From the IMG/VR virus record IMGVR_UViG_3300036790_000419, positions 84,914 through 148,913 of that record: a DNA stretch of 64,000 nucleotides. The stretch is one strand, 5' to 3'. Shown piece after piece: positions 3,445 through 8,378 of the stretch (its first letter is position 1; each line of letters opens with the position of its first letter). A model generated the notes under the pieces. The model ran no database searches and was not told where the DNA came from. It worked only from the letters and a program-made list of their open reading frames with translations. The stretch comes from a virus. Both the position numbers and the translations under genes were made by a program.

Positions 3445-3517
3445 AGGGACGTAGTTCAGCGGCCAGAACGGCAGCTTCCAACACTGCGCGCCGGGGGTTC
3501 GAGTCCTCCCGTCCCTG
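3445..3517 (+). tRNA. tRNA-Trp(CCA)
   Basis: Acceptor AGGGACG/CGTCCCT, D-stem GTTC/GAAC, loop TTCCAAC (anticodon CCA), T-loop TTCGAGT, discriminator G. The anticodon stem closes with a C31-A39 mismatch. First tRNA of the array. Confidence 0.9.
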
Positions 3518-3815
3518 CGACCGTCAGCAACGGCGAGAGCCCGCGCAGGCGCATGTCAATGCAGCTTGAGAACTCCACAGCGTGAGCATCAGCGGCGGGC
3601 GCCATCCCGTCGCACATGACTGGCAGCCGGGTGCGCTCACACCGTGCCCGGCTGCCGATCAACGCCCGGTTCACGGCATGCCGTGACGATGGGCAAGCAC
3701 CGTGCCGTCCGCCGGCCTCCGGGCTCGCGTTCCACCGTAGGGGTGTGCGGCCTGGCTCCGGCCAGGTGGCGGCGGTACTTGGTGTCAAGAGTTTTTGCAC
3801 GATATGCAAAGCAAT
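3518..3815. other. gene-poor spacer with inverted repeats
   Basis: No convincing gene. It holds a 10-bp inverted repeat GGCAGCCGGG (3622-3631) / CCCGGCTGCC (3647-3656) and a perfect 16-base palindrome TCACGGCATGCCGTGA (3671-3686). A TTTGCA/TGCAAA pair lies just before the next tRNA. These are probably processing or termination structures of the array transcript. Confidence 0.5.
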
Positions 3816-3888
3816 GGGGCCTTAGCTCAGCTGGTAGAGCATCTGCTCGGCAGACAGAAGGTCGGGGGTTCGATCCCCCCAGGCTCCA
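3816..3888 (+). tRNA. tRNA-Ala(GGC), C33
   Basis: Acceptor GGGGCCT/AGGCTCC with the alanine-specific G3-U70 pair. Loop TCGGCAG puts C at position 33 and GGC at 34-36. The anticodon stem closes with C31-A39. The other arms are normal, with discriminator A. Confidence 0.75.
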
Positions 3889-3890
3889 CA

Positions 3891-3965
3891 GCGGCGGGTT
3901 GCCGGTTCGAATCCGGTCCGGTCCACGCATGGGCTGGTAGCTCAAATGGACAGAGTGTCGCATCT
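3891..3965 (+). tRNA. circularly permuted tRNA-like element 1
   Basis: The 3' half comes first: GCGGC (anticodon-stem strand, 3891-3895), variable GGGTT, T-arm GCCGG-TTCGAAT-CCGGT, acceptor strand CCGGTCC and discriminator A3925. After a 5-base linker comes the 5' half: acceptor GGGCTGG (3931-3937), TA, D-arm GCTC/GAGT, anticodon-stem strand GTCGC and ATCT. All seven acceptor pairs and all five anticodon-stem pairs form between the halves, including three G-U pairs. It is wedged directly between two complete tRNA-Ala genes. It could be a functional permuted tRNA or the remnant of a tandem duplication. Confidence 0.5.
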
Positions 3966-4038
3966 GGGGACGTAGCTCAGCTGGTAGAGCAGCCGCCTCG
4001 CAAGCGGCGTGTCGCGGGTTCGATTCCCGCCTTCTCCA
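3966..4038 (+). tRNA. tRNA-Ala(CGC)
   Basis: Acceptor GGGGACG/CTTCTCC with G3-U70 and one C-T mismatch. Anticodon stem GCCGC/GCGGC, loop CTCGCAA (anticodon CGC), discriminator A. Starts at the base after the permuted element. Confidence 0.9.
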
Positions 4039-4194
4039 CTTAGGGCACTACTGCCGCGCGTCGGCCGGCGCAAGGCGAGAGAGGGCAGCTGACCTCTCTG
4101 GTGCCTTACCGTTCACCCGTGCGGTAAAACCGGGGACCAGCGGAGCCGAATGTCCGGGGCACCGGGCTGAGGGTGGGGTAAGCCTCCGCAACAT

Positions 4195-4269
4195 CGGGGT
4201 GTGGCGCAGCTTGGCTAGCGCGCTACGTTCGGGACGTAGAGGTCGTGAGTTCAAATCTCACCACTCCGA
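4195..4269 (+). tRNA. tRNA-Pro(CGG)
   Basis: Acceptor CGGGGTG/CACTCCG, D-stem GCGC/GCGC, stem CTACG/CGTAG, loop TTCGGGA (anticodon CGG), discriminator A. CCA is encoded at 4270-4272. Confidence 0.92.
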
Positions 4270-4272
4270 CCA

Positions 4273-4328
4273 GGATCTCAATGGCTCAAGTGAGGCGGCA
4301 GTAAAGGGCCACGCCCTGCCGGAGATCC
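4273..4328 (+). other. structured RNA spacer between tRNA-Pro genes
   Basis: An outer 7-bp stem GGATCTC/GAGATCC encloses two hairpins, CTCA/TGAG and CGGCAG/CTGCCG (with inner GGGC/GCCC). It has no T-loop, so it is not a tRNA. It may be an RNase III or RNase E processing element. Confidence 0.4.
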
Positions 4329-4332
4329 GTAA

Positions 4333-4404
4333 CGGGATGTAGTTCAGTGGAAGAGCGCCTGGTTTGGGACCAGGATGTCGCGGGTTCGAGCCCTGCCATC
4401 CCGA
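4333..4404 (+). tRNA. tRNA-Pro(TGG)
   Basis: Acceptor CGGGATG/CATCCCG, anticodon stem CCTGG/CCAGG, loop TTTGGGA (anticodon TGG), T-loop TTCGAGC, discriminator A. No encoded CCA. Confidence 0.92.
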
Positions 4405-4474
4405 CTGCTGGTCAGAGCCGCGTGGCGTGCGGGCCCTTAGCGGGGCACTCAGGGTTCGAGTCCCTGCCTGGTCA
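4405..4474 (+). other. orphan T-arm, probable tRNA remnant
   Basis: A perfect T-arm CAGGG-TTCGAGT-CCCTG (4450-4466) is followed by CCTGGTC-A like an acceptor end, but no matching 5' acceptor strand lies next to it. CTGGTCAG occurs at both ends (4407 and 4469), suggesting a deletion or rearrangement. Confidence 0.35.
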
Positions 4475-4553
4475 GCCGCTCCGGTAATAGGGACGCCAGC
4501 AGCGGACGCGCGCTGGCGGTCGGTGAAACCCCGTTGCGAATCCGGAGCACCCT

Positions 4554-4626
4554 GGGGCCTTAGCTCAGATGGCAGAGCGCCCGGTTGAAACCCGGAAGGT
4601 CGGAGTCTCGGAATCTCCAGGTCCCG
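4554..4626 (+). tRNA. tRNA-Phe(GAA), aberrant T-loop
   Basis: Acceptor GGGGCCT/AGGTCCC, loop TTGAAAC (anticodon GAA). The T-loop reads CTCGGAA instead of TTCGANT, so the T54 and A58 positions are changed. Discriminator G rather than the usual A. Possibly decaying. Confidence 0.7.
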
Positions 4627-4640
4627 CGCAGTAACACAAT

Positions 4641-4713
4641 GGGGATGTGGCCGAACGGTTACAGGCACTTGCCTTCCAAGCAAGCTACGCGGGTTCGACC
4701 CCCGTCATCCCCT
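4641..4713 (+). tRNA. tRNA-Gly(TCC)
   Basis: Acceptor GGGGATG/CATCCCC, stem CTTGC/GCAAG, loop CTTCCAA (anticodon TCC), discriminator T. Confidence 0.92.
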
Positions 4714-4841
4714 CTGGTACGGGCCGGACTCATACTCCGGTTGCGTGCAAGTAACCGGTCCGCGGCTGTCGGGCTGCGGACCGGGAGCGCCTGGGCTGCC
4801 CGGAGGGGCCGACACCCTCTCCGGGGGCACCAGTACTCAAT

Positions 4842-4913
4842 GCGCCGCGAGCATGTACGGCTATGCAGCGGACTCTTAATCCACGGAACGGGGTTCAAGT
4901 CCCTGGCGGCGCA
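4842..4913 (+). tRNA. tRNA-Lys(CTT)
   Basis: Acceptor GCGCCGC/GCGGCGC, D-stem GCAT/ATGC, loop CTCTTAA (anticodon CTT), discriminator A. Position 8 is G instead of T and the anticodon stem has one C-A mismatch. Confidence 0.85.
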
Positions 4914-4957
4914 CTTCACCTGGCTTCGCCGATTTTCGGCAGAGTTCGGTGTTATTC

Positions 4958-5032
4958 GGGCGAGTAGAGCAACCTGGCAGACCCTCCGCTCCCAAAAAGC
5001 GGGATGTGCGGGTTCGAATCCCGCCTCGCCCA
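4958..5032 (+). tRNA. atypical tRNA, Gly(CCC) or CAA anticodon
   Basis: Perfect acceptor GGGCGAG/CTCGCCC and T-arm GCGGG-TTCGAAT-CCCGC, but a poor D-arm. The anticodon arm reads CCGCT-CCCAAAA-AGCGG. With a 7-base loop the anticodon is CAA with C33, on a short variable region unlike Leu. With a 9-base loop U33 precedes CCC, a glycine anticodon. Identity unresolved. Confidence 0.55.
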
Positions 5033-5136
5033 CGCCGGCTGGCAAGGCCGTCCTGCGAATCCTTGCCCGGCCTCTCCTGTGGGGAGAGCAAAGGCCGTTA
5101 CAGGAGGGGGAGAAAAGGCCCCTCCCGTCAATTCAG

Positions 5137-5209
5137 TGGGGTATGGCGCAATTGGCAGCGCAGGTGCGTCTGGTGCACAAGGTTCTAGGTTCGAGTCCTG
5201 GTACCCCAG
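5137..5209 (+). tRNA. tRNA-Gln(CTG)
   Basis: Acceptor TGGGGTA/TACCCCA with G73 (Gln identity), D-stem GCGC/GCGC, loop GTCTGGT (anticodon CTG), T-loop TTCGAGT. Confidence 0.92.
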
Positions 5210-5212
5210 CGA

Positions 5213-5287
5213 GCTGGAGAATGCGGGTTCGAATCCTGCCCGGCGAGAGAGATCTCGCCGGTGGCTTAATCGGCAAAGCGCCAGCAA
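5213..5287 (+). tRNA. circularly permuted tRNA-like element 2
   Basis: The 3' half is first: anticodon-stem strand GCTGG (5213-5217), variable AGAAT, T-arm GCGGG-TTCGAAT-CCTGC, acceptor strand CCGGCGA and G73 (5247). A 7-base linker follows, then the 5' half: TCGCCGG (5255-5261), TG, D-arm GCTT/AAGC, G26, CCAGC (5281-5285) and AA. The acceptor stem (7 of 7) and anticodon stem (5 of 5) are fully Watson-Crick. A hairpin CCCCGGGC/GCCCGGGG (5288-5320) follows at once. Three bases separate it from the tRNA-Gln end. The anticodon cannot be read because the loop is split. Confidence 0.55.
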
Positions 5288-5321
5288 CCCCGGGCACGGA
5301 CGGTATCCCGGCCCGGGGCCC

Positions 5322-5395
5322 GCCCTTGTAGCTCATCTGGCAAGAGCGCCCGCCCCGTAAGCGGAAGGTCCCGCGTTCGACTCGCGGCAAGGGCT
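5322..5395 (+). tRNA. tRNA-Thr(CGT), C33
   Basis: Acceptor GCCCTTG/CAAGGGC, loop CCCGTAA where CTCGTAA is usual, so U33 is C. T-loop TTCGACT, discriminator T. Confidence 0.8.
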
Positions 5396-5506
5396 CGTAG
5401 TGTCCCGCCGAAGGCGTCACAGGCCCTCATGCCGGCTCCGTTCCAGGTGCCGTGCGGGGTTCGAGTTCTGCTCGTTTCTCCCTCGATCGCGCGTCGCGAT
5501 CATTAT
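5396..5506. other. tRNA remnant and hairpin spacer
   Basis: Contains an isolated T-arm-like GCGGGGTTCGAGTTCTGC (near 5453-5470) without a matching acceptor, and a perfect hairpin GATCGCG-CGT-CGCGATC (5485-5501). Confidence 0.35.
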
Positions 5507-5580
5507 GCCCGGATAGCTCAGACGGCGAGAGCGTATCCCCGGTACGGATGAGGCCCCGAGTTCGATTCTCGGTCCGGGCT
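5507..5580 (+). tRNA. tRNA-Thr(GGT), C33
   Basis: Acceptor GCCCGGA/TCCGGGC, stem TATCC/GGATG, loop CCGGTAC (anticodon GGT, C at 33), T-arm CCGAG-TTCGATT-CTCGG, discriminator T. Confidence 0.8.
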
Positions 5581-5591
5581 CGCAAGTTCAC

Positions 5592-5665
5592 GCGGATGTA
5601 GCTCAGTTGGTTAGAGCGTGACGTTGCCAACGTCAAGGTCGCCGGTTCGAGTCCGGTTATCCGCT
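5592..5665 (+). tRNA. tRNA-Gly(GCC)
   Basis: Acceptor GCGGATG/TATCCGC, stem TGACG/CGTCA, loop TTGCCAA (anticodon GCC), discriminator T. Confidence 0.92.
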
Positions 5666-5666
5666 C

Positions 5667-5749
5667 GGGTGAGTGGCGTAATGGCAGCCGCGCACGGTTC
5701 AGGCCCGTGTGTCCGCAAGGACGTGAGGGTTCAAGTCCCTCCTCGCCTA
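5667..5749 (+). tRNA. tRNA-Leu(CAG)
   Basis: Class II tRNA with a long variable arm (GTCC/GGAC). Acceptor GGGTGAG/CTCGCCT, stem CACGG/CCGTG, loop TTCAGGC (anticodon CAG), discriminator A. Confidence 0.92.
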
Positions 5750-5859
5750 CTTCGAGGTTGTCCACCGTGGCCGCGGGCCGCTGCGCCTGCCGTGCGAGAG
5801 CACGGGTTCCAGGACGGCGGTTAGTTTCCCTGCTAGCGGGAGCGAACGGTGACCTACAC

Positions 5860-5943
5860 GGACGCGTGGCTCAGTGGCTACAGCAGCGCCCTGCTAAGGC
5901 GTACAGGGGTAACCCTGCGGAGGTTCGAGTCCTCCCGCGTCCG
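5860..5943 (+). tRNA. tRNA-Ser(GCT)
   Basis: Class II, variable arm CAGGG/CCCTG. Acceptor GGACGCG/CGCGTCC, loop CTGCTAA (anticodon GCT), discriminator G as expected for Ser. Confidence 0.92.
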
Positions 5944-6028
5944 CTTCTGCGCCGGATACCAGCCGAGTCCGTCAGGTGGTGACGCAGGCGCAGTGCCCGT
6001 GGGGGACGGCAACCCGCGACGGGCGCCC

Positions 6029-6116
6029 GGAAGCGTAAGTCGAGCCGGCCTACCGACAGCGGTCCCGAAAACCGTGAGGGGTAACTCCCGTGTGGGTTCG
6101 AGTCCCACCGCTTCCT
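6029..6116 (+). tRNA. tRNA-Ser(CGA), C33
   Basis: Class II, variable arm GGGG/CTCC. Acceptor GGAAGCG/CGCTTCC, stem GCGGT/ACCGT, loop CCCGAAA where CTCGAAA is usual, so C33. Discriminator T instead of G. Confidence 0.78.
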
Positions 6117-6123
6117 CCGCACA

Positions 6124-6167
6124 TGATTGAGGCGGCACCCACGGGCCGCTTGCGGGTACCGCCTCAA
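6124..6167 (+). terminator. 10-bp hairpin inside the tRNA array
   Basis: ATTGAGGCGG pairs exactly with CCGCCTCAAT around a 23-base loop. It may end or pause a sub-transcript of the array. The following 115 bases are relatively AT-rich, with a second hairpin CGAGCAG/CTGCTCG. Confidence 0.5.
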
Positions 6168-6283
6168 TGTGTAATCAGCCAGGCTGGTGATCCAGTCCAG
6201 AAGGAAGGAACCACGTGCCTTTACGAGCAGCCTAGTTTACTGCTCGCGTTCGCAAGCATACGCACAGTCACAGTGATTGTCGA

Positions 6284-6357
6284 GGGCGGGTAGCTCAGCA
6301 GGTTGGAGCACTTCCCTGATAAGGAAGAGGCCGCTGGTTCGATCCCAGCCTCGCCCA
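6284..6357 (+). tRNA. tRNA-Ile(GAT)
   Basis: Acceptor GGGCGGG/CTCGCCC, stem CTTCC/GGAAG, loop CTGATAA (anticodon GAT), discriminator A, CCA encoded at 6358-6360. Confidence 0.93.
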
Positions 6358-6361
6358 CCAC

Positions 6362-6436
6362 GGCGGTATAGCTCAGCCGGTGAGAGCGCCCCGCTCATAA
6401 CGGGAGAGGCCGGGGGTTCGAGCCCCTCTACCGCTA
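6362..6436 (+). tRNA. tRNA-Met(CAT)
   Basis: Acceptor GGCGGTA/TACCGCT, loop CTCATAA (anticodon CAT), discriminator A. Elongator type, or Ile2 if C34 is lysidinylated; the sequence does not decide. Confidence 0.88.
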
Positions 6437-6437
6437 C

Positions 6438-6511
6438 GGGCCGCTAGCTCAACTGCGCAGAGCGGCTGACCTTTAATCAGCGGGTTCGGGGTTCGAGTCC
6501 CCGGCGGCCCA
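6438..6511 (+). tRNA. tRNA-Lys(TTT)
   Basis: Acceptor GGGCCGC/GCGGCCC, stem GCTGA/TCAGC, loop CCTTTAA (anticodon TTT), T-arm CGGGG-TTCGAGT-CCCCG, discriminator A. Confidence 0.93.
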
Positions 6512-6519
6512 CTAGCCTG

Positions 6520-6675
6520 GTGCGCGTGAGGAACCTCGCGCTCCGGGCAGCTGAGCGCCTGCACGTCATCTTCGACGCCGTCCCGGTTTACGAGGACGAG
6601 CGGTGGTACAGGTACGGAGACTGGGGCTGCCGGGCGTCCAACTGGGTGCGCCGGCAGCGGAACAAGCGCCGGTAG
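6520..6675 (+). CDS. small basic protein inside the tRNA array
   Basis: Fifty-one residues from a GTG nine bases after tRNA-Lys. It is rich in Arg and aromatic residues (RWYRYGDWGC), and its stop TAG lies inside the start of tRNA-Arg(TCT). No clear Shine-Dalgarno. The aromatic and charged composition argues for a real protein, but no family is recognised. Confidence 0.45.
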   Translation: MRVRNLALRAAERLHVIFDAVPVYEDERWYRYGDWGCRASNWVRRQRNKRR

Positions 6676-6739
6676 CTCAGTCGGACAGAGCAGGCGGCTT
6701 CTAACCGCCAGGCCGCGGGTTCGAGCCCCGCCTGGCGCA
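6666..6739 (+). tRNA. tRNA-Arg(TCT)
   Basis: Acceptor GCGCCGG/CTGGCGC, stem GGCGG/CCGCC, loop CTTCTAA (anticodon TCT), discriminator A, CCA encoded. Its first ten bases are also the end of the small frame before it. Confidence 0.93.
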
Positions 6740-6745
6740 CCACAC

Positions 6746-6818
6746 GGTCCTGTCGTCTAGCGGCCCAGGATGCCTGATTCTCGATCAGGTCGCGCGAGTT
6801 CGAATCTCGCCAGGACCA
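6746..6818 (+). tRNA. tRNA-Glu(CTC)
   Basis: Acceptor GGTCCTG/CAGGACC, stem CCTGA/TCAGG, loop TTCTCGA (anticodon CTC), T-loop TTCGAAT, discriminator A. Confidence 0.9.
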
Positions 6819-6912
6819 CGCAGAGCCTGCTACGCGGGAGACGGCCATTGCCAAAGCAGGTACTCTGAGGTCCGCGCCGGGAGCTGGCTGAAATCCGCTC
6901 GGCAGGACGCAA

Positions 6913-6986
6913 GCCCCTCTCGACTAGCGGTCCAGGTCGCCTGCCTTTCAAGCAGGATGACACCGGTTCGAATCCGGTGGGGGGAA
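6913..6986 (+). tRNA. tRNA-Glu(TTC)
   Basis: Acceptor GCCCCTC/GGGGGGA with a G1-A72 mismatch, stem CCTGC/GCAGG, loop CTTTCAA (anticodon TTC), T-arm ACCGG-TTCGAAT-CCGGT. Confidence 0.82.
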
Positions 6987-7017
6987 CGAGGGCCTCCGGG
7001 GTAACCTGGGGGCGCGA

Positions 7018-7095
7018 CGCGGAGTAGGGGAGTTCGGTTGTCCCCGCGGCGCTTTCATAACGCCGAGATCGCGGGTCCGAATCCCGCCTCCGCCA
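7018..7095 (+). tRNA. tRNA with CAT in a 9-base loop, initiator-like
   Basis: Acceptor CGCGGAG/CTCCGCC with a C1-C72 mismatch, as initiators have a 1-72 mismatch. D-stem GGGG/CCCC. Anticodon stem CGGCG/CGCCG encloses a 9-base loop CTTTCATAA; the normal Met loop is CTCATAA, so TT is extra. The T-loop is TCCGAAT, so C replaces T55. Read with a 7-base loop and a C-A closing mismatch the anticodon would be TCA (UGA). Function uncertain. Confidence 0.6.
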
Positions 7096-7186
7096 CGAGG
7101 CCCGGCACTGGCGGCCGGCGAAAGCCCCGGGGAATACGTGGCTGGCCCTGCTGGATAAGGGCTAAACAGCCGGGGGCCTCAGTCGA

Positions 7187-7259
7187 TCCGGCGTAGCTCA
7201 ATCGGCAGAGCAGCGTCCCGTTAAGGCGAGGGTTCCCAGTTCGAGTCTGGGCGCCGGAG
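7187..7259 (+). tRNA. tRNA-Asn(GTT), C33
   Basis: Acceptor TCCGGCG/CGCCGGA with G73, loop CCGTTAA where CTGTTAA is usual, T-arm CCCAG-TTCGAGT-CTGGG. Confidence 0.82.
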
Positions 7260-7364
7260 CGCGTCAGTCTGGGATACGAGGGGCAGCAGCCCTGCCGCGG
7301 CCCGCGCGGCGGTCGCCGAAGCGGGACGAGTGCCGGGGCTCCCCAGTCAGCCGCCGGCACACAT

Positions 7365-7440
7365 GGTCTTGTAGGGGAGCCTGGCCGTCCCCGCCGCCCC
7401 GTCAAGGCGAAGATCGCGGGTTCGAATCCCGCCAGGACCG
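7365..7440 (+). tRNA. tRNA-Asp(GTC), C33
   Basis: Acceptor GGTCTTG/CAGGACC with G73, D-stem GGGG/CCCC, loop CCGTCAA where CTGTCAA is usual, T-arm GCGGG-TTCGAAT-CCCGC. Confidence 0.82.
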
Positions 7441-7464
7441 CTTTCTCACCCGGGGCCGGGGCGT

Positions 7465-7599
7465 TTAGACACCGGAGCGCTTGCGCCGCTCGCCCAGCTC
7501 GGTCCGCCCGAGCCGGTACAGGGCGCGGTAGCCGCCGAGCCTCAGCCCGATCCAGATGCCGGAGCCGAAGGCGATGACCAGGAGGATGAAAATGCCCAC
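7465..7599 (-). CDS. small membrane protein inside the tRNA array
   Basis: Forty-four residues on the minus strand from GTG at 7599, in the gap between tRNA-Asp and tRNA-Val. One hydrophobic helix (residues 3-17, IFILLVIAFGSGIWIG) is followed by an Arg-rich tail (GERRKRSG). It is a plausible single-pass protein with a cytoplasmic basic tail. No homologue recognised. Confidence 0.5.
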   Translation of the reverse strand: MGIFILLVIAFGSGIWIGLRLGGYRALYRLGRTELGERRKRSGV

Positions 7600-7641
7600 G
7601 TGATTAAACGGTACCTGGTTCTTTACCAGTGTCTAGGCACT

Positions 7642-7713
7642 GCCCCTGTAGCTCAACGGGAGAGCGCCGTCTCGACAAGGCGGAGGGAGGTGGTCCGACA
7701 CCACCTAGGGGCA
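7642..7713 (+). tRNA. tRNA-Val(GAC), C33
   Basis: Acceptor GCCCCTG/TAGGGGC, stem CCGTC/GGCGG, loop TCGACAA (anticodon GAC, C33). T-loop TCCGACA has C at 55. Discriminator A, CCA encoded. Confidence 0.78.
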
Positions 7714-7717
7714 CCAT

Positions 7718-7791
7718 GCACTAGTAGCTCAGCGGACAAGAGCAGCGGCCTACGGAGCCGCGTGGCGGGGGTTCGAGTCCCTCCTAGTGCA
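7718..7791 (+). tRNA. tRNA-Arg(ACG)
   Basis: Acceptor GCACTAG/CTAGTGC, stem GCGGC/GCCGC, loop CTACGGA (anticodon ACG, needs inosine for CGC), discriminator A. Confidence 0.92.
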
Positions 7792-7802
7792 CGCGAGTAC
7801 AA

Positions 7803-7874
7803 GGGCGCATAGCTCAGCGGAAGAGCGCTCGGTTCACACCCGAGAGGCCGGCGGTTCGATCCCTTCTGCGCCCA
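7803..7874 (+). tRNA. tRNA-Val(CAC)
   Basis: Acceptor GGGCGCA/TGCGCCC, stem CTCGG/CCGAG, loop TTCACAC (anticodon CAC), discriminator A. The T-stem has one mismatch. Confidence 0.9.
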
Positions 7875-7875
7875 C

Positions 7876-7947
7876 GGTCGGTATAGCTCAACGGCAGAGC
7901 GCTGGACTGTGGCTCCAGACATACGAGTTCGATTCTCGTTACCAACC
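7876..7947 (+). tRNA. tRNA-His(GTG)
   Basis: Carries the His identity pair G-1 (7876) with C73. Stem CTGGA/TCCAG, loop CTGTGGC (anticodon GTG), T-arm ACGAG-TTCGATT-CTCGT, one C3-A70 acceptor mismatch. Confidence 0.9.
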
Positions 7948-7951
7948 CCAT

Positions 7952-8032
7952 GGCGGAGTGACCCGAGATGGCAAGGGGGCCGGCTGTAAACCGGCTGCGC
8001 GAGCATGGCAGGTTCGAGCCCTGCGTCCGTCA
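7952..8032 (+). tRNA. tRNA-Tyr(GTA)
   Basis: Long variable arm as in bacterial Tyr tRNAs. Stem GCCGG/CCGGC, loop CTGTAAA (anticodon GTA), T-arm GCAGG-TTCGAGC-CCTGC, discriminator A, CCA encoded. Confidence 0.9.
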
Positions 8033-8036
8033 CCAA

Positions 8037-8110
8037 GGTCTCATAGCTCAGTGGAACAGAGCACCCGCCTCCGGAGCGGGGGGCCGGCGGTTCGAGTCCG
8101 TCTGAGACCA
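8037..8110 (+). tRNA. tRNA-Arg(CCG)
   Basis: Acceptor GGTCTCA/TGAGACC, stem CCCGC/GCGGG, loop CTCCGGA (anticodon CCG), discriminator A. Confidence 0.92.
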
Positions 8111-8198
8111 CGACTGAGTTCACCGCCGTGACCTGGCAGCGGGTAGCGGTGGGCCAGTAAAGCGGGGCGTGCTGCCGGCTACGCCTGCCCCGTCCAAT

Positions 8199-8271
8199 GG
8201 CGGTATGGCCGAGTGGTACAGGCGCACGCCTGCAAAACGTGCTTACCCGGGTCCGATTCCCGGTGCCGCCT
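8199..8271 (+). tRNA. tRNA-Cys(GCA)
   Basis: Acceptor GGCGGTA/TGCCGCC, stem CACGC/ACGTG with C31-A39 closing mismatch, loop CTGCAAA (anticodon GCA). T-loop TCCGATT has C at 55. Discriminator T, CCA encoded. Confidence 0.88.
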
Positions 8272-8275
8272 CCAG

Positions 8276-8348
8276 GACCCTGTAGCTCAGCGGACAGAGC
8301 TGCTTCCCCCTAAGGAGCGAGTCGCTGGTTCGAGTCCAGCCAGGGCCG
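8276..8348 (+). tRNA. tRNA-Arg(CCT), C33
   Basis: Acceptor GACCCTG/CAGGGCC with one A-C mismatch, stem GCTTC/GGAGC, loop CCCCTAA where CTCCTAA is usual, discriminator G. Last tRNA of the array. Confidence 0.82.
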
Positions 8349-8378
8349 CCTTCGGTGCTCACGCTGTGGCAGCCTGGA

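What the first reader, a model, noticed from the sequence alone, without database searches (positions are those of the whole stretch)
5210..5290. Permuted tRNA with perfect stems (3' half before 5' half)
A T-arm plus acceptor 3' strand (5213-5247) precedes a D-arm plus acceptor 5' strand (5255-5287). TCGCCGG pairs with CCGGCGA in all 7 positions and CCAGC with GCTGG in all 5, with no wobble. By chance 12 specified pairs would be extremely rare. Permuted tRNA genes are established in some algae and archaea, where a bulge-helix-bulge at the ends is spliced; I see no such motif here, and bacteria lack that endonuclease. The alternative is a tandem duplication that lost its outer halves.
Basis: partly seen in the sequence, partly recalled or inferred. 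Interest (0 to 1): 0.85.

Follow-up and report, generated by a model that had tools for sequence, protein, structure and literature searches.

The report
Y-RNA-like tRNA mimic in phage array
The "back-to-front tRNA" is real, but it is most likely not a tRNA gene: it is the tRNA-imitating part of a bacterial Y RNA (YrlA type), stripped of its usual protein-binding stem and tucked between ordinary tRNA genes of a large phage, where it may act as a tRNA decoy.

Summary
Window 5213-5285 folds, as its minimum-energy structure, into a circularly permuted cloverleaf whose acceptor-like arm is closed by a GAGA tetraloop. It is not alone: in 16 related tRNA arrays 14 such elements lie outside tRNAs (score >=17; none in 20 spacer shuffles), between Ala/Ala, Pro/Pro and Gln/Thr tRNAs, and 15 of 21 pairs show double compensatory changes. 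A covariance model built only from 25 bacterial YrlA (Y RNA) tRNA-like domains ranks this element first in the window (65.8 bits, E 8e-18; next non-element match 35). YrlA's domain is known to be a circular permutation of tRNA. No joining of the ends gives a 7-nt anticodon loop with U33, and no splicing endonuclease, RtcB or RNA_ligase gene was found in the phage, so a decoding permuted tRNA is unlikely. Two slot homologs, and relatives without any element, argue against a deletion remnant. Unusual: array elements lack YrlA's Ro60-binding basal stem and their phages lack Ro60, whereas 6 of 6 tested phages with stem-bearing YrlA encode it. I read it as a Ro-free YrlA module, probably released by processing of neighbouring tRNAs; its function as tRNA mimic or decoy is inferred.

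The parts
5137..5209 (+). tRNA-Gln(CTG), upstream neighbour; discriminator G5209 is followed by C5210-G-A5212 and then the element
   Evidence: ARAGORN; sequence
5213..5285 (+). Permuted tRNA-like domain (YrlA-type): 3' anticodon-stem strand, variable region, T-arm, closed acceptor-like arm, D-arm, 5' anticodon-stem strand
   Evidence: folds; model R1 (other phages' array elements) 64.8 bits; model R2 (bacterial YrlA) 65.8 bits, E 8e-18; Rfam RF02553 25.8 bits
5213..5217 (+). 3' strand of anticodon-equivalent stem (GCTGG), pairs with 5281-5285
5223..5239 (+). T-arm GCGGG-TTCGAAT-CCTGC
5240..5261 (+). Acceptor-equivalent arm: 5240-5248 pairs with 5253-5261 (9 bp), GAGA tetraloop 5249-5252
5264..5279 (+). 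D-arm GCTT-AATCGGCA-AAGC, with GG in the loop and U at the position-8 equivalent (5262)
5281..5285 (+). 5' strand of anticodon-equivalent stem (CCAGC)
5288..5318 (+). 3' hairpin following after AA; similar hairpins, with closing strands CCCCGGG / CCCCCGG / CCTCCGG and matching partners, follow the same element in L002 and L006
5322..5396 (+). tRNA-Thr(CGT), downstream neighbour whose 5' processing would release the 3' end (inferred)
3891..3961 (+). Second permuted tRNA-like domain in the same array, between tRNA-Ala(GGC) and tRNA-Ala(CGC); 4 nt (ATCT) before the next tRNA
   Evidence: 45.9 bits; 62.1 bits; that alignment runs on into the next tRNA's D-arm
3445..8350 (+). tRNA array (33 tRNAs by ARAGORN) in which both elements lie on the same strand as the tRNAs

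Best explanation
Window 5213-5285 is the tRNA-like domain of a bacterial Y RNA of the YrlA type, present without the basal stem that YrlA uses to hold the Ro60 protein, and lying inside a phage tRNA operon. Shown by sequence: the permuted cloverleaf with a closed acceptor-like arm; homology to the tRNA-like domains of bacterial YrlA; conservation with compensatory changes in relatives, including the same Gln slot; absence of a basal stem and of a Ro60 gene. Inferred: it is transcribed with the tRNAs, its ends are released by 3' processing of tRNA-Gln and RNase P cleavage of tRNA-Thr, and the 3' hairpin protects it. It then acts as a stable uncharged tRNA mimic seen by tRNA-binding enzymes (modification enzymes such as TruB and Dus, PNPase, or tRNA-targeting nucleases). 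A decoy or competitor role is the likeliest use, at about 0.3; the identity as a YrlA-type tRNA mimic is about 0.85.
For: 1) A covariance model (R2) from 25 bacterial YrlA domains, chosen by their TTACTTC/ATACTTC basal-stem motif, puts this element first in the window (65.8 bits, E 8e-18) and the element at 3891 second (62.1); all other matches are <=35 bits, and the strong ones among them overlap one or two tRNAs. In 21 other loci tRNA-tRNA junctions reach about 52 bits at most. 2) Rfam RF02553 (YrlA) matches it at model positions 23-85 and matches relatives L030 and L003 over the full model 1-114. 3) YrlA's tRNA-like domain is a circular permutation of tRNA (PDB 6CU1; PMC11472068). 4) Array elements of other phages: 94.8% of cells paired, 15 of 21 pairs with changes on both sides, 0 of 500 shuffles as high; R1, built from them, scores the finding 64.8 bits without having seen it. 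5) Basal stem absent: flank-flank duplex z near 0 in array elements, -1.4 to -5.3 in phage YrlAs with a stem. 6) Ro60 (PF05731) in 6 of 6 tested phages with stem-bearing YrlA, in 0 of 5 further phages with array elements and in 0 of 21 records of this phage family. 7) The acceptor arm is closed by a GNRA-type loop with no free discriminator.
Against: RF02553 is far below its gathering score (25.8 against 69), since the model includes the missing basal stem. Bacterial YrlAs were found with a pattern requiring CCGG in the acceptor arm, so that feature is partly built in. T- and D-arm similarity alone is shared with tRNA. No expression data exist. The decoy role has no direct evidence here.
Confidence: 0.82

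Rival explanations
1. A genuine circularly permuted tRNA gene. The transcript ends are joined in the anticodon loop by a ligase, then RNase P and tRNase Z open the acceptor loop and CCA is added, giving a decoding tRNA.
For: Gene order, perfect stems and tRNA-like T and D loops. In L037 the ends left by the two flanking Pro tRNAs would join to a 7-nt loop ATAACGA with U33. Acceptor-side intervening sequences of 1-74 nt are known in permuted tRNAs (PMC3978253).
Against: At 5213-5285 no division of the two flanks gives a 7-nt loop with U33: the 5' half continues AACC, the 3' half is preceded by CCAGCGA. Other array elements end in many different ways and most lack U33. No BHB. No PF01974, PF01139 or PF09414 in the phage. 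The acceptor end is sealed by a GAGA tetraloop. The closest homologs are YrlA domains.
Confidence: 0.06
2. Remnant of a tandem tRNA duplication that lost the outer halves, without function.
For: Tandem duplication is a plausible route to such an order. Neighbouring Ala tRNAs and the Ala-slot elements have similar anticodon stems.
Against: Stems are kept by compensatory changes across phages. The same-slot homologs L002 11012 and L006 15249 are 76% identical to it yet keep the arms, apart from mismatches in the acceptor arm. No relative shows two intact tRNAs there; gaps are 8-10 nt in L005 and L008.
Confidence: 0.05
3. A YrlA-type RNA that is still a working Y RNA: it binds a host Ro60 protein or PNPase through contacts other than the missing basal stem and redirects RNA decay.
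For: In the known RYPER complex YrlA's tRNA-like domain contacts PNPase (PMC8394870), and that part is intact. Related phages carry full YrlA-like RNAs beside a SCO0854-family gene.
Against: No basal stem and no Ro60 gene in the phage. The host is unknown.
Confidence: 0.2
4. A processing spacer: a stable cloverleaf between tRNAs that guides RNase P or RNase Z, with no role after excision.
For: Location directly between tRNAs; many elements abut tRNAs within 0-4 nt.
Against: Most gaps in these arrays have no such element. A spacer would not need conserved T-loop and D-loop letters.
Confidence: 0.1

Closest known systems
YrlA bacterial Y RNA (Rfam RF02553), tRNA-like domain
   Same: Order T-arm, acceptor-like arm closed by a loop, D-arm; anticodon-equivalent stem at the base; 65.8 bits to a bacterial YrlA domain model
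   Different: No basal stem from paired ends, no Ro60 gene in the genome, embedded between tRNA genes, complete 5-bp anticodon-equivalent stem instead
Circularly permuted tRNA genes of algae and Thermofilum pendens (PMC3978253)
   Same: 3' half precedes 5' half; break in the anticodon loop (their type II)
   Different: No BHB motif, no splicing endonuclease in the phage, no possible U33 anticodon loop, acceptor end sealed by a tetraloop
Permuted two-piece tmRNA (from general knowledge)
   Same: tRNA-like part made from segments in reversed order
   Different: No tag-coding part and no tmRNA match in the array
Phage tRNAs that counter tRNA-cutting defences (PMC10264068, PMC11555353)
   Same: Part of a phage tRNA array, plausible counter-defence role
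   Different: Cannot decode; any protection would be by competition rather than replacement

Membership tests
YrlA (RF02553) | Permuted tRNA-like domain with T-arm, closed acceptor arm and D-arm | tested here: met
   fold; R2 65.8 bits
YrlA (RF02553) | Basal stem formed by the RNA's 5' and 3' ends (Ro60 binding) | tested here: not met
   flank duplex z = 0.0; upstream flank is the tRNA-Gln acceptor end
YrlA (RF02553) | Rfam gathering score 69 bits | tested here: not met
   25.8 bits, model 23-85
YrlA (RF02553) | Ro60/Rsr (TROVE) protein in the same genome | tested here: not met
   PF05731 absent from G000; a host protein cannot be excluded
YrlA (RF02553) | Binding to PNPase, modification by TruB and DusA | not testable with these tools
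   known for YrlA (PMC8394870)
Circularly permuted tRNA gene | 3' half before 5' half with intact stems | tested here: met
Circularly permuted tRNA gene | BHB motif at the junction | tested here: not met
   flanks do not pair with each other beyond chance
Circularly permuted tRNA gene | 7-nt anticodon loop with U33 after joining | tested here: not met
   every division of AACC.. and ..CCAGCGA gives A or C at 33
Circularly permuted tRNA gene | Splicing endonuclease and RNA ligase available | tested here: inconclusive
   PF01974, PF01139, PF09414 absent from the phage; the PF09511 search had a silent control; host unknown
Circularly permuted tRNA gene | Circular intermediate and mature charged tRNA | not testable with these tools
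   needs RNA from infected cells
Deletion remnant of tandem tRNAs | Two tandem tRNAs at the site in relatives, decay of pairing | tested here: not met

The most novel reading that the evidence does not exclude
Large phages without Ro60 have turned the tRNA-like domain of Y RNA into stand-alone RNAs that are cut out of tRNA operons by ordinary tRNA processing and serve as uncharged decoys against tRNA-targeting host enzymes (anticodon nucleases or modification enzymes): a Ro-independent use of Y RNA.
Probability: 0.25. Interest if true: 0.8.

Novelty: new variant of a known kind. Interest (0 to 1): 0.6.

Why it matters
It explains a permuted tRNA in a phage without invoking a splicing pathway that bacteria lack. 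It shows that the Y RNA tRNA mimic exists as a separable module without Ro60. It also makes a proposed role of YrlA, competitive inhibition of tRNA nucleases (PMC7790460), testable in a setting (phage tRNA arrays) where tRNA-based counter-defence is already known. Such elements may be misread as tRNA genes or pseudogenes.

Tried and rejected
A parallel-pairing control for the scanner was uninformative, because CCTGTCC/GGACAGG-like strands pair either way. BLAST of the array against GenBank phages found only tRNA-level similarity. The flank-pairing test with 35 nt is too short for many bacterial YrlAs, whose basal stems are longer, so it is used only for phage loci. Pattern GAGCANNNNNCTTRRAAATAGC, meant for the L003/L030 kind of flank, brought mostly unrelated contigs. 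Ligase family PF09511 could not be judged because its control was silent. The SCO0854-family protein of L003 has no relative beside the bacterial or other phage YrlA loci fetched (tblastn 1e-5). The original YrlA papers (RNA 2014, Structure 2018) are not held, so their content is cited through PMC8394870, PMC11472068 and PMC7790460. Enrichment of CCGG in the acceptor arm (9 of 17 array elements against 13 of 485 array tRNAs) is partly biased by the search pattern.

Full report
OBSERVATION. The sequence at 5213-5285 is as described. The strand reads, in order: anticodon-stem 3' strand GCTGG, a five-base variable region, a T-arm with TTCGAAT loop, CCGGCGA, eight bases, TCGCCGG, UG, a D-arm, and anticodon-stem 5' strand CCAGC. 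The minimum-energy fold is exactly a permuted cloverleaf, more stable than all 200 shuffles. The acceptor-like arm extends to 9 bp and is capped by GAGA. ARAGORN and Rfam's tRNA model do not call it; they call tRNA-Gln(CTG) before it and tRNA-Thr(CGT) after it.

NOT CHANCE, NOT ALONE. The window is bases 84914-148913 of a 148,913-base IMG/VR virus record. TerL and portal searches gave relatives. A scanner for the permuted order, with hits overlapping ARAGORN tRNAs removed, found elements in the same arrays at recurring places: between Ala(GGC) and Ala(CGC) in the window (3891-3961), L002, L005 and L006; between Pro(CGG) and Pro(TGG) in L003, L037 and L117; and after Gln(CTG) in the window and L002. 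A covariance model also shows one after Gln in L006 (sequence). In 16 arrays there are 14 hits at score >=17 and none in 20 spacer shuffles. A pattern scan of IMG/VR added array elements in other phages, between Gly/Leu, Lys/Leu, Met/Trp and Ala/Ala tRNAs. In an alignment of twelve array elements from other phages, 94.8% of cells pair and 15 of 21 pairs show changes on both sides, against about 6 in shuffles; slid partners drop to about 49%. Exchanging whole strands between elements lowers acceptor pairing from 91% to 63% and anticodon-stem pairing from 94% to 67%. The scanner demanded at least 5 of 7 and 3 of 5 pairs, which inflates these figures somewhat.

WHAT IT IS. Rfam offers one family with this order: YrlA, the bacterial Y RNA. 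Two relatives, L003 20249-20318 and L030 1215-1281, match it over its whole length at 37.9 and 44.8 bits with a basal stem; the two window elements match only the tRNA-like part, at 30.0 and 25.8 bits. All are below the gathering score of 69. To test homology independently I collected bacterial genomes by pattern, kept 25 with the basal-stem motif TTACTTC or ATACTTC, aligned their tRNA-like domains and built model R2. In the window R2 scores 5213-5285 at 65.8 bits and the Ala-slot element at 62.1. The next match is 35.1, and the strong remaining matches overlap one or two tRNAs. R1, built from other phages' array elements, gives 64.8 and 45.9 bits. Across other loci tRNA-tRNA junctions reach about 52 bits, so 65.8 is well clear. 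That YrlA is a circular permutation of tRNA is established by its crystal structure 6CU1 (as reported in PMC11472068).

HOW IT DIFFERS FROM YrlA. In YrlA the two ends pair into a basal stem that holds Ro60 (PMC8394870). In array elements the flanks do not pair (z between -1.7 and +1.8, most near 0), whereas in phage YrlAs with a stem they do (z -1.4 to -5.3). The upstream flank is usually the acceptor end of the preceding tRNA. The protein partner follows the stem: Ro60 (TROVE) is present in all six phage records tested with stem-bearing YrlA and absent from five further records with array elements and from all 21 records of this phage family. Records may be incomplete, so absences are not final. 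The exception is L003 and L030, whose stem-bearing YrlA-like RNA lies beside a SCO0854-family gene instead of Ro60. The array elements keep the full anticodon-equivalent stem, whereas bacterial YrlAs pair only its inner part reliably.

THE GLN SLOT. L002 11012-11088 and L006 15249-15326 lie directly after tRNA-Gln and are homologous to the finding (76% identity each). Each is followed by AACC and a hairpin whose closing strands are CCCCGGG, CCCCCGG and CCTCCGG with matching partners, so the unit probably includes 5288-5318. On its own L002's element is not the minimum-energy fold of its stretch, while L006's and the window's are. L005 and L008 have gaps of 8-10 nt there and no element; no relative has two tandem tRNAs. 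This argues against a deletion remnant.

PERMUTED tRNA GENE? The bases after CCAGC are AACC and those before GCTGG are CCAGCGA. Whatever the join, position 33 is A or C. Flanks form no BHB. PF01974, RtcB (PF01139) and RNA_ligase (PF09414) are absent from the phage; PF09511 could not be judged and the host is unknown. Intervening sequences of 1-74 nt are known in permuted tRNAs (PMC3978253), so loop length alone decides nothing. L037 is the one case where the ends left by flanking tRNAs would give a 7-nt loop with U33 (ATAACGA), so I leave this reading a small probability.

MECHANISM. Inferred: co-transcription with the array; RNase P and 3' processing of the neighbours free the element; T- and D-loop contacts make an L-shaped RNA with no free CCA end; tRNA-binding proteins bind it. 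For YrlA, TruB and DusA modification and PNPase binding are known (PMC8394870), and competition with an anticodon nuclease has been proposed (PMC7790460). Phage tRNAs are known to counter tRNA-cutting defences (PMC10264068, PMC11555353). A decoy is therefore my leading functional guess, at about 0.3, unproven.

VERDICT. Real, conserved, not a decoding tRNA on present evidence: a Ro-free YrlA-type tRNA mimic inside phage tRNA arrays. It is a new variant of a known kind.

Noticed in passing
L066:11914-11987 (= G000:C1:11914-11987): Third permuted tRNA-like element of the same phage genome, outside the tRNA array, overlapping the 3' end of a sigma-factor-like ORF; about 90% identical to the Pro-slot element L003 13394. 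Two relatives (L075, L085) share the upstream sequence but not the element.
   Followed up: partly
L003:17867-20700 and L030:1-1500: A MXAN_6230/SCO0854-family gene (NF041916, E 5.7e-88; below its curated cut-off) is followed by a cluster of small RNAs sharing GGCCAT..GCTTCCTTC..TAGC arms, one carrying a full YrlA-like domain; the L037-L042 phages have the gene and similar arms. No Ro60 in these phages. A possible second protein partner of Y RNAs.
   Followed up: partly
L024:50-193: Two permuted tRNA-like domains in tandem before tRNA-Phe, the first preceded by ...CCCGACGA.
   Followed up: no
L208:5617-5694 (Mycobacterium phage Sebata NC_041993): A permuted tRNA-like element between tRNA-Met and tRNA-Cys of a cultured mycobacteriophage; weaker match to the models (22.5 bits).
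   Followed up: no
window 5209-5213, L037:3010-3014, L024:45-50: The trinucleotide CGA lies between the upstream tRNA's last base and the element in several slots; possibly a processing signal.
   Followed up: no
window 7018-7096: ARAGORN calls tRNA-SeC(TCA); most relatives have tRNA-Met(CAT) at this place, so the anticodon may be misread by a base.
   Followed up: no
L236, L237, L247, L249, L273 (Bradyrhizobium) and other bacterial YrlA loci: ARAGORN reports tRNAs overlapping stem-bearing YrlA genes, an annotation pitfall.
   Followed up: no
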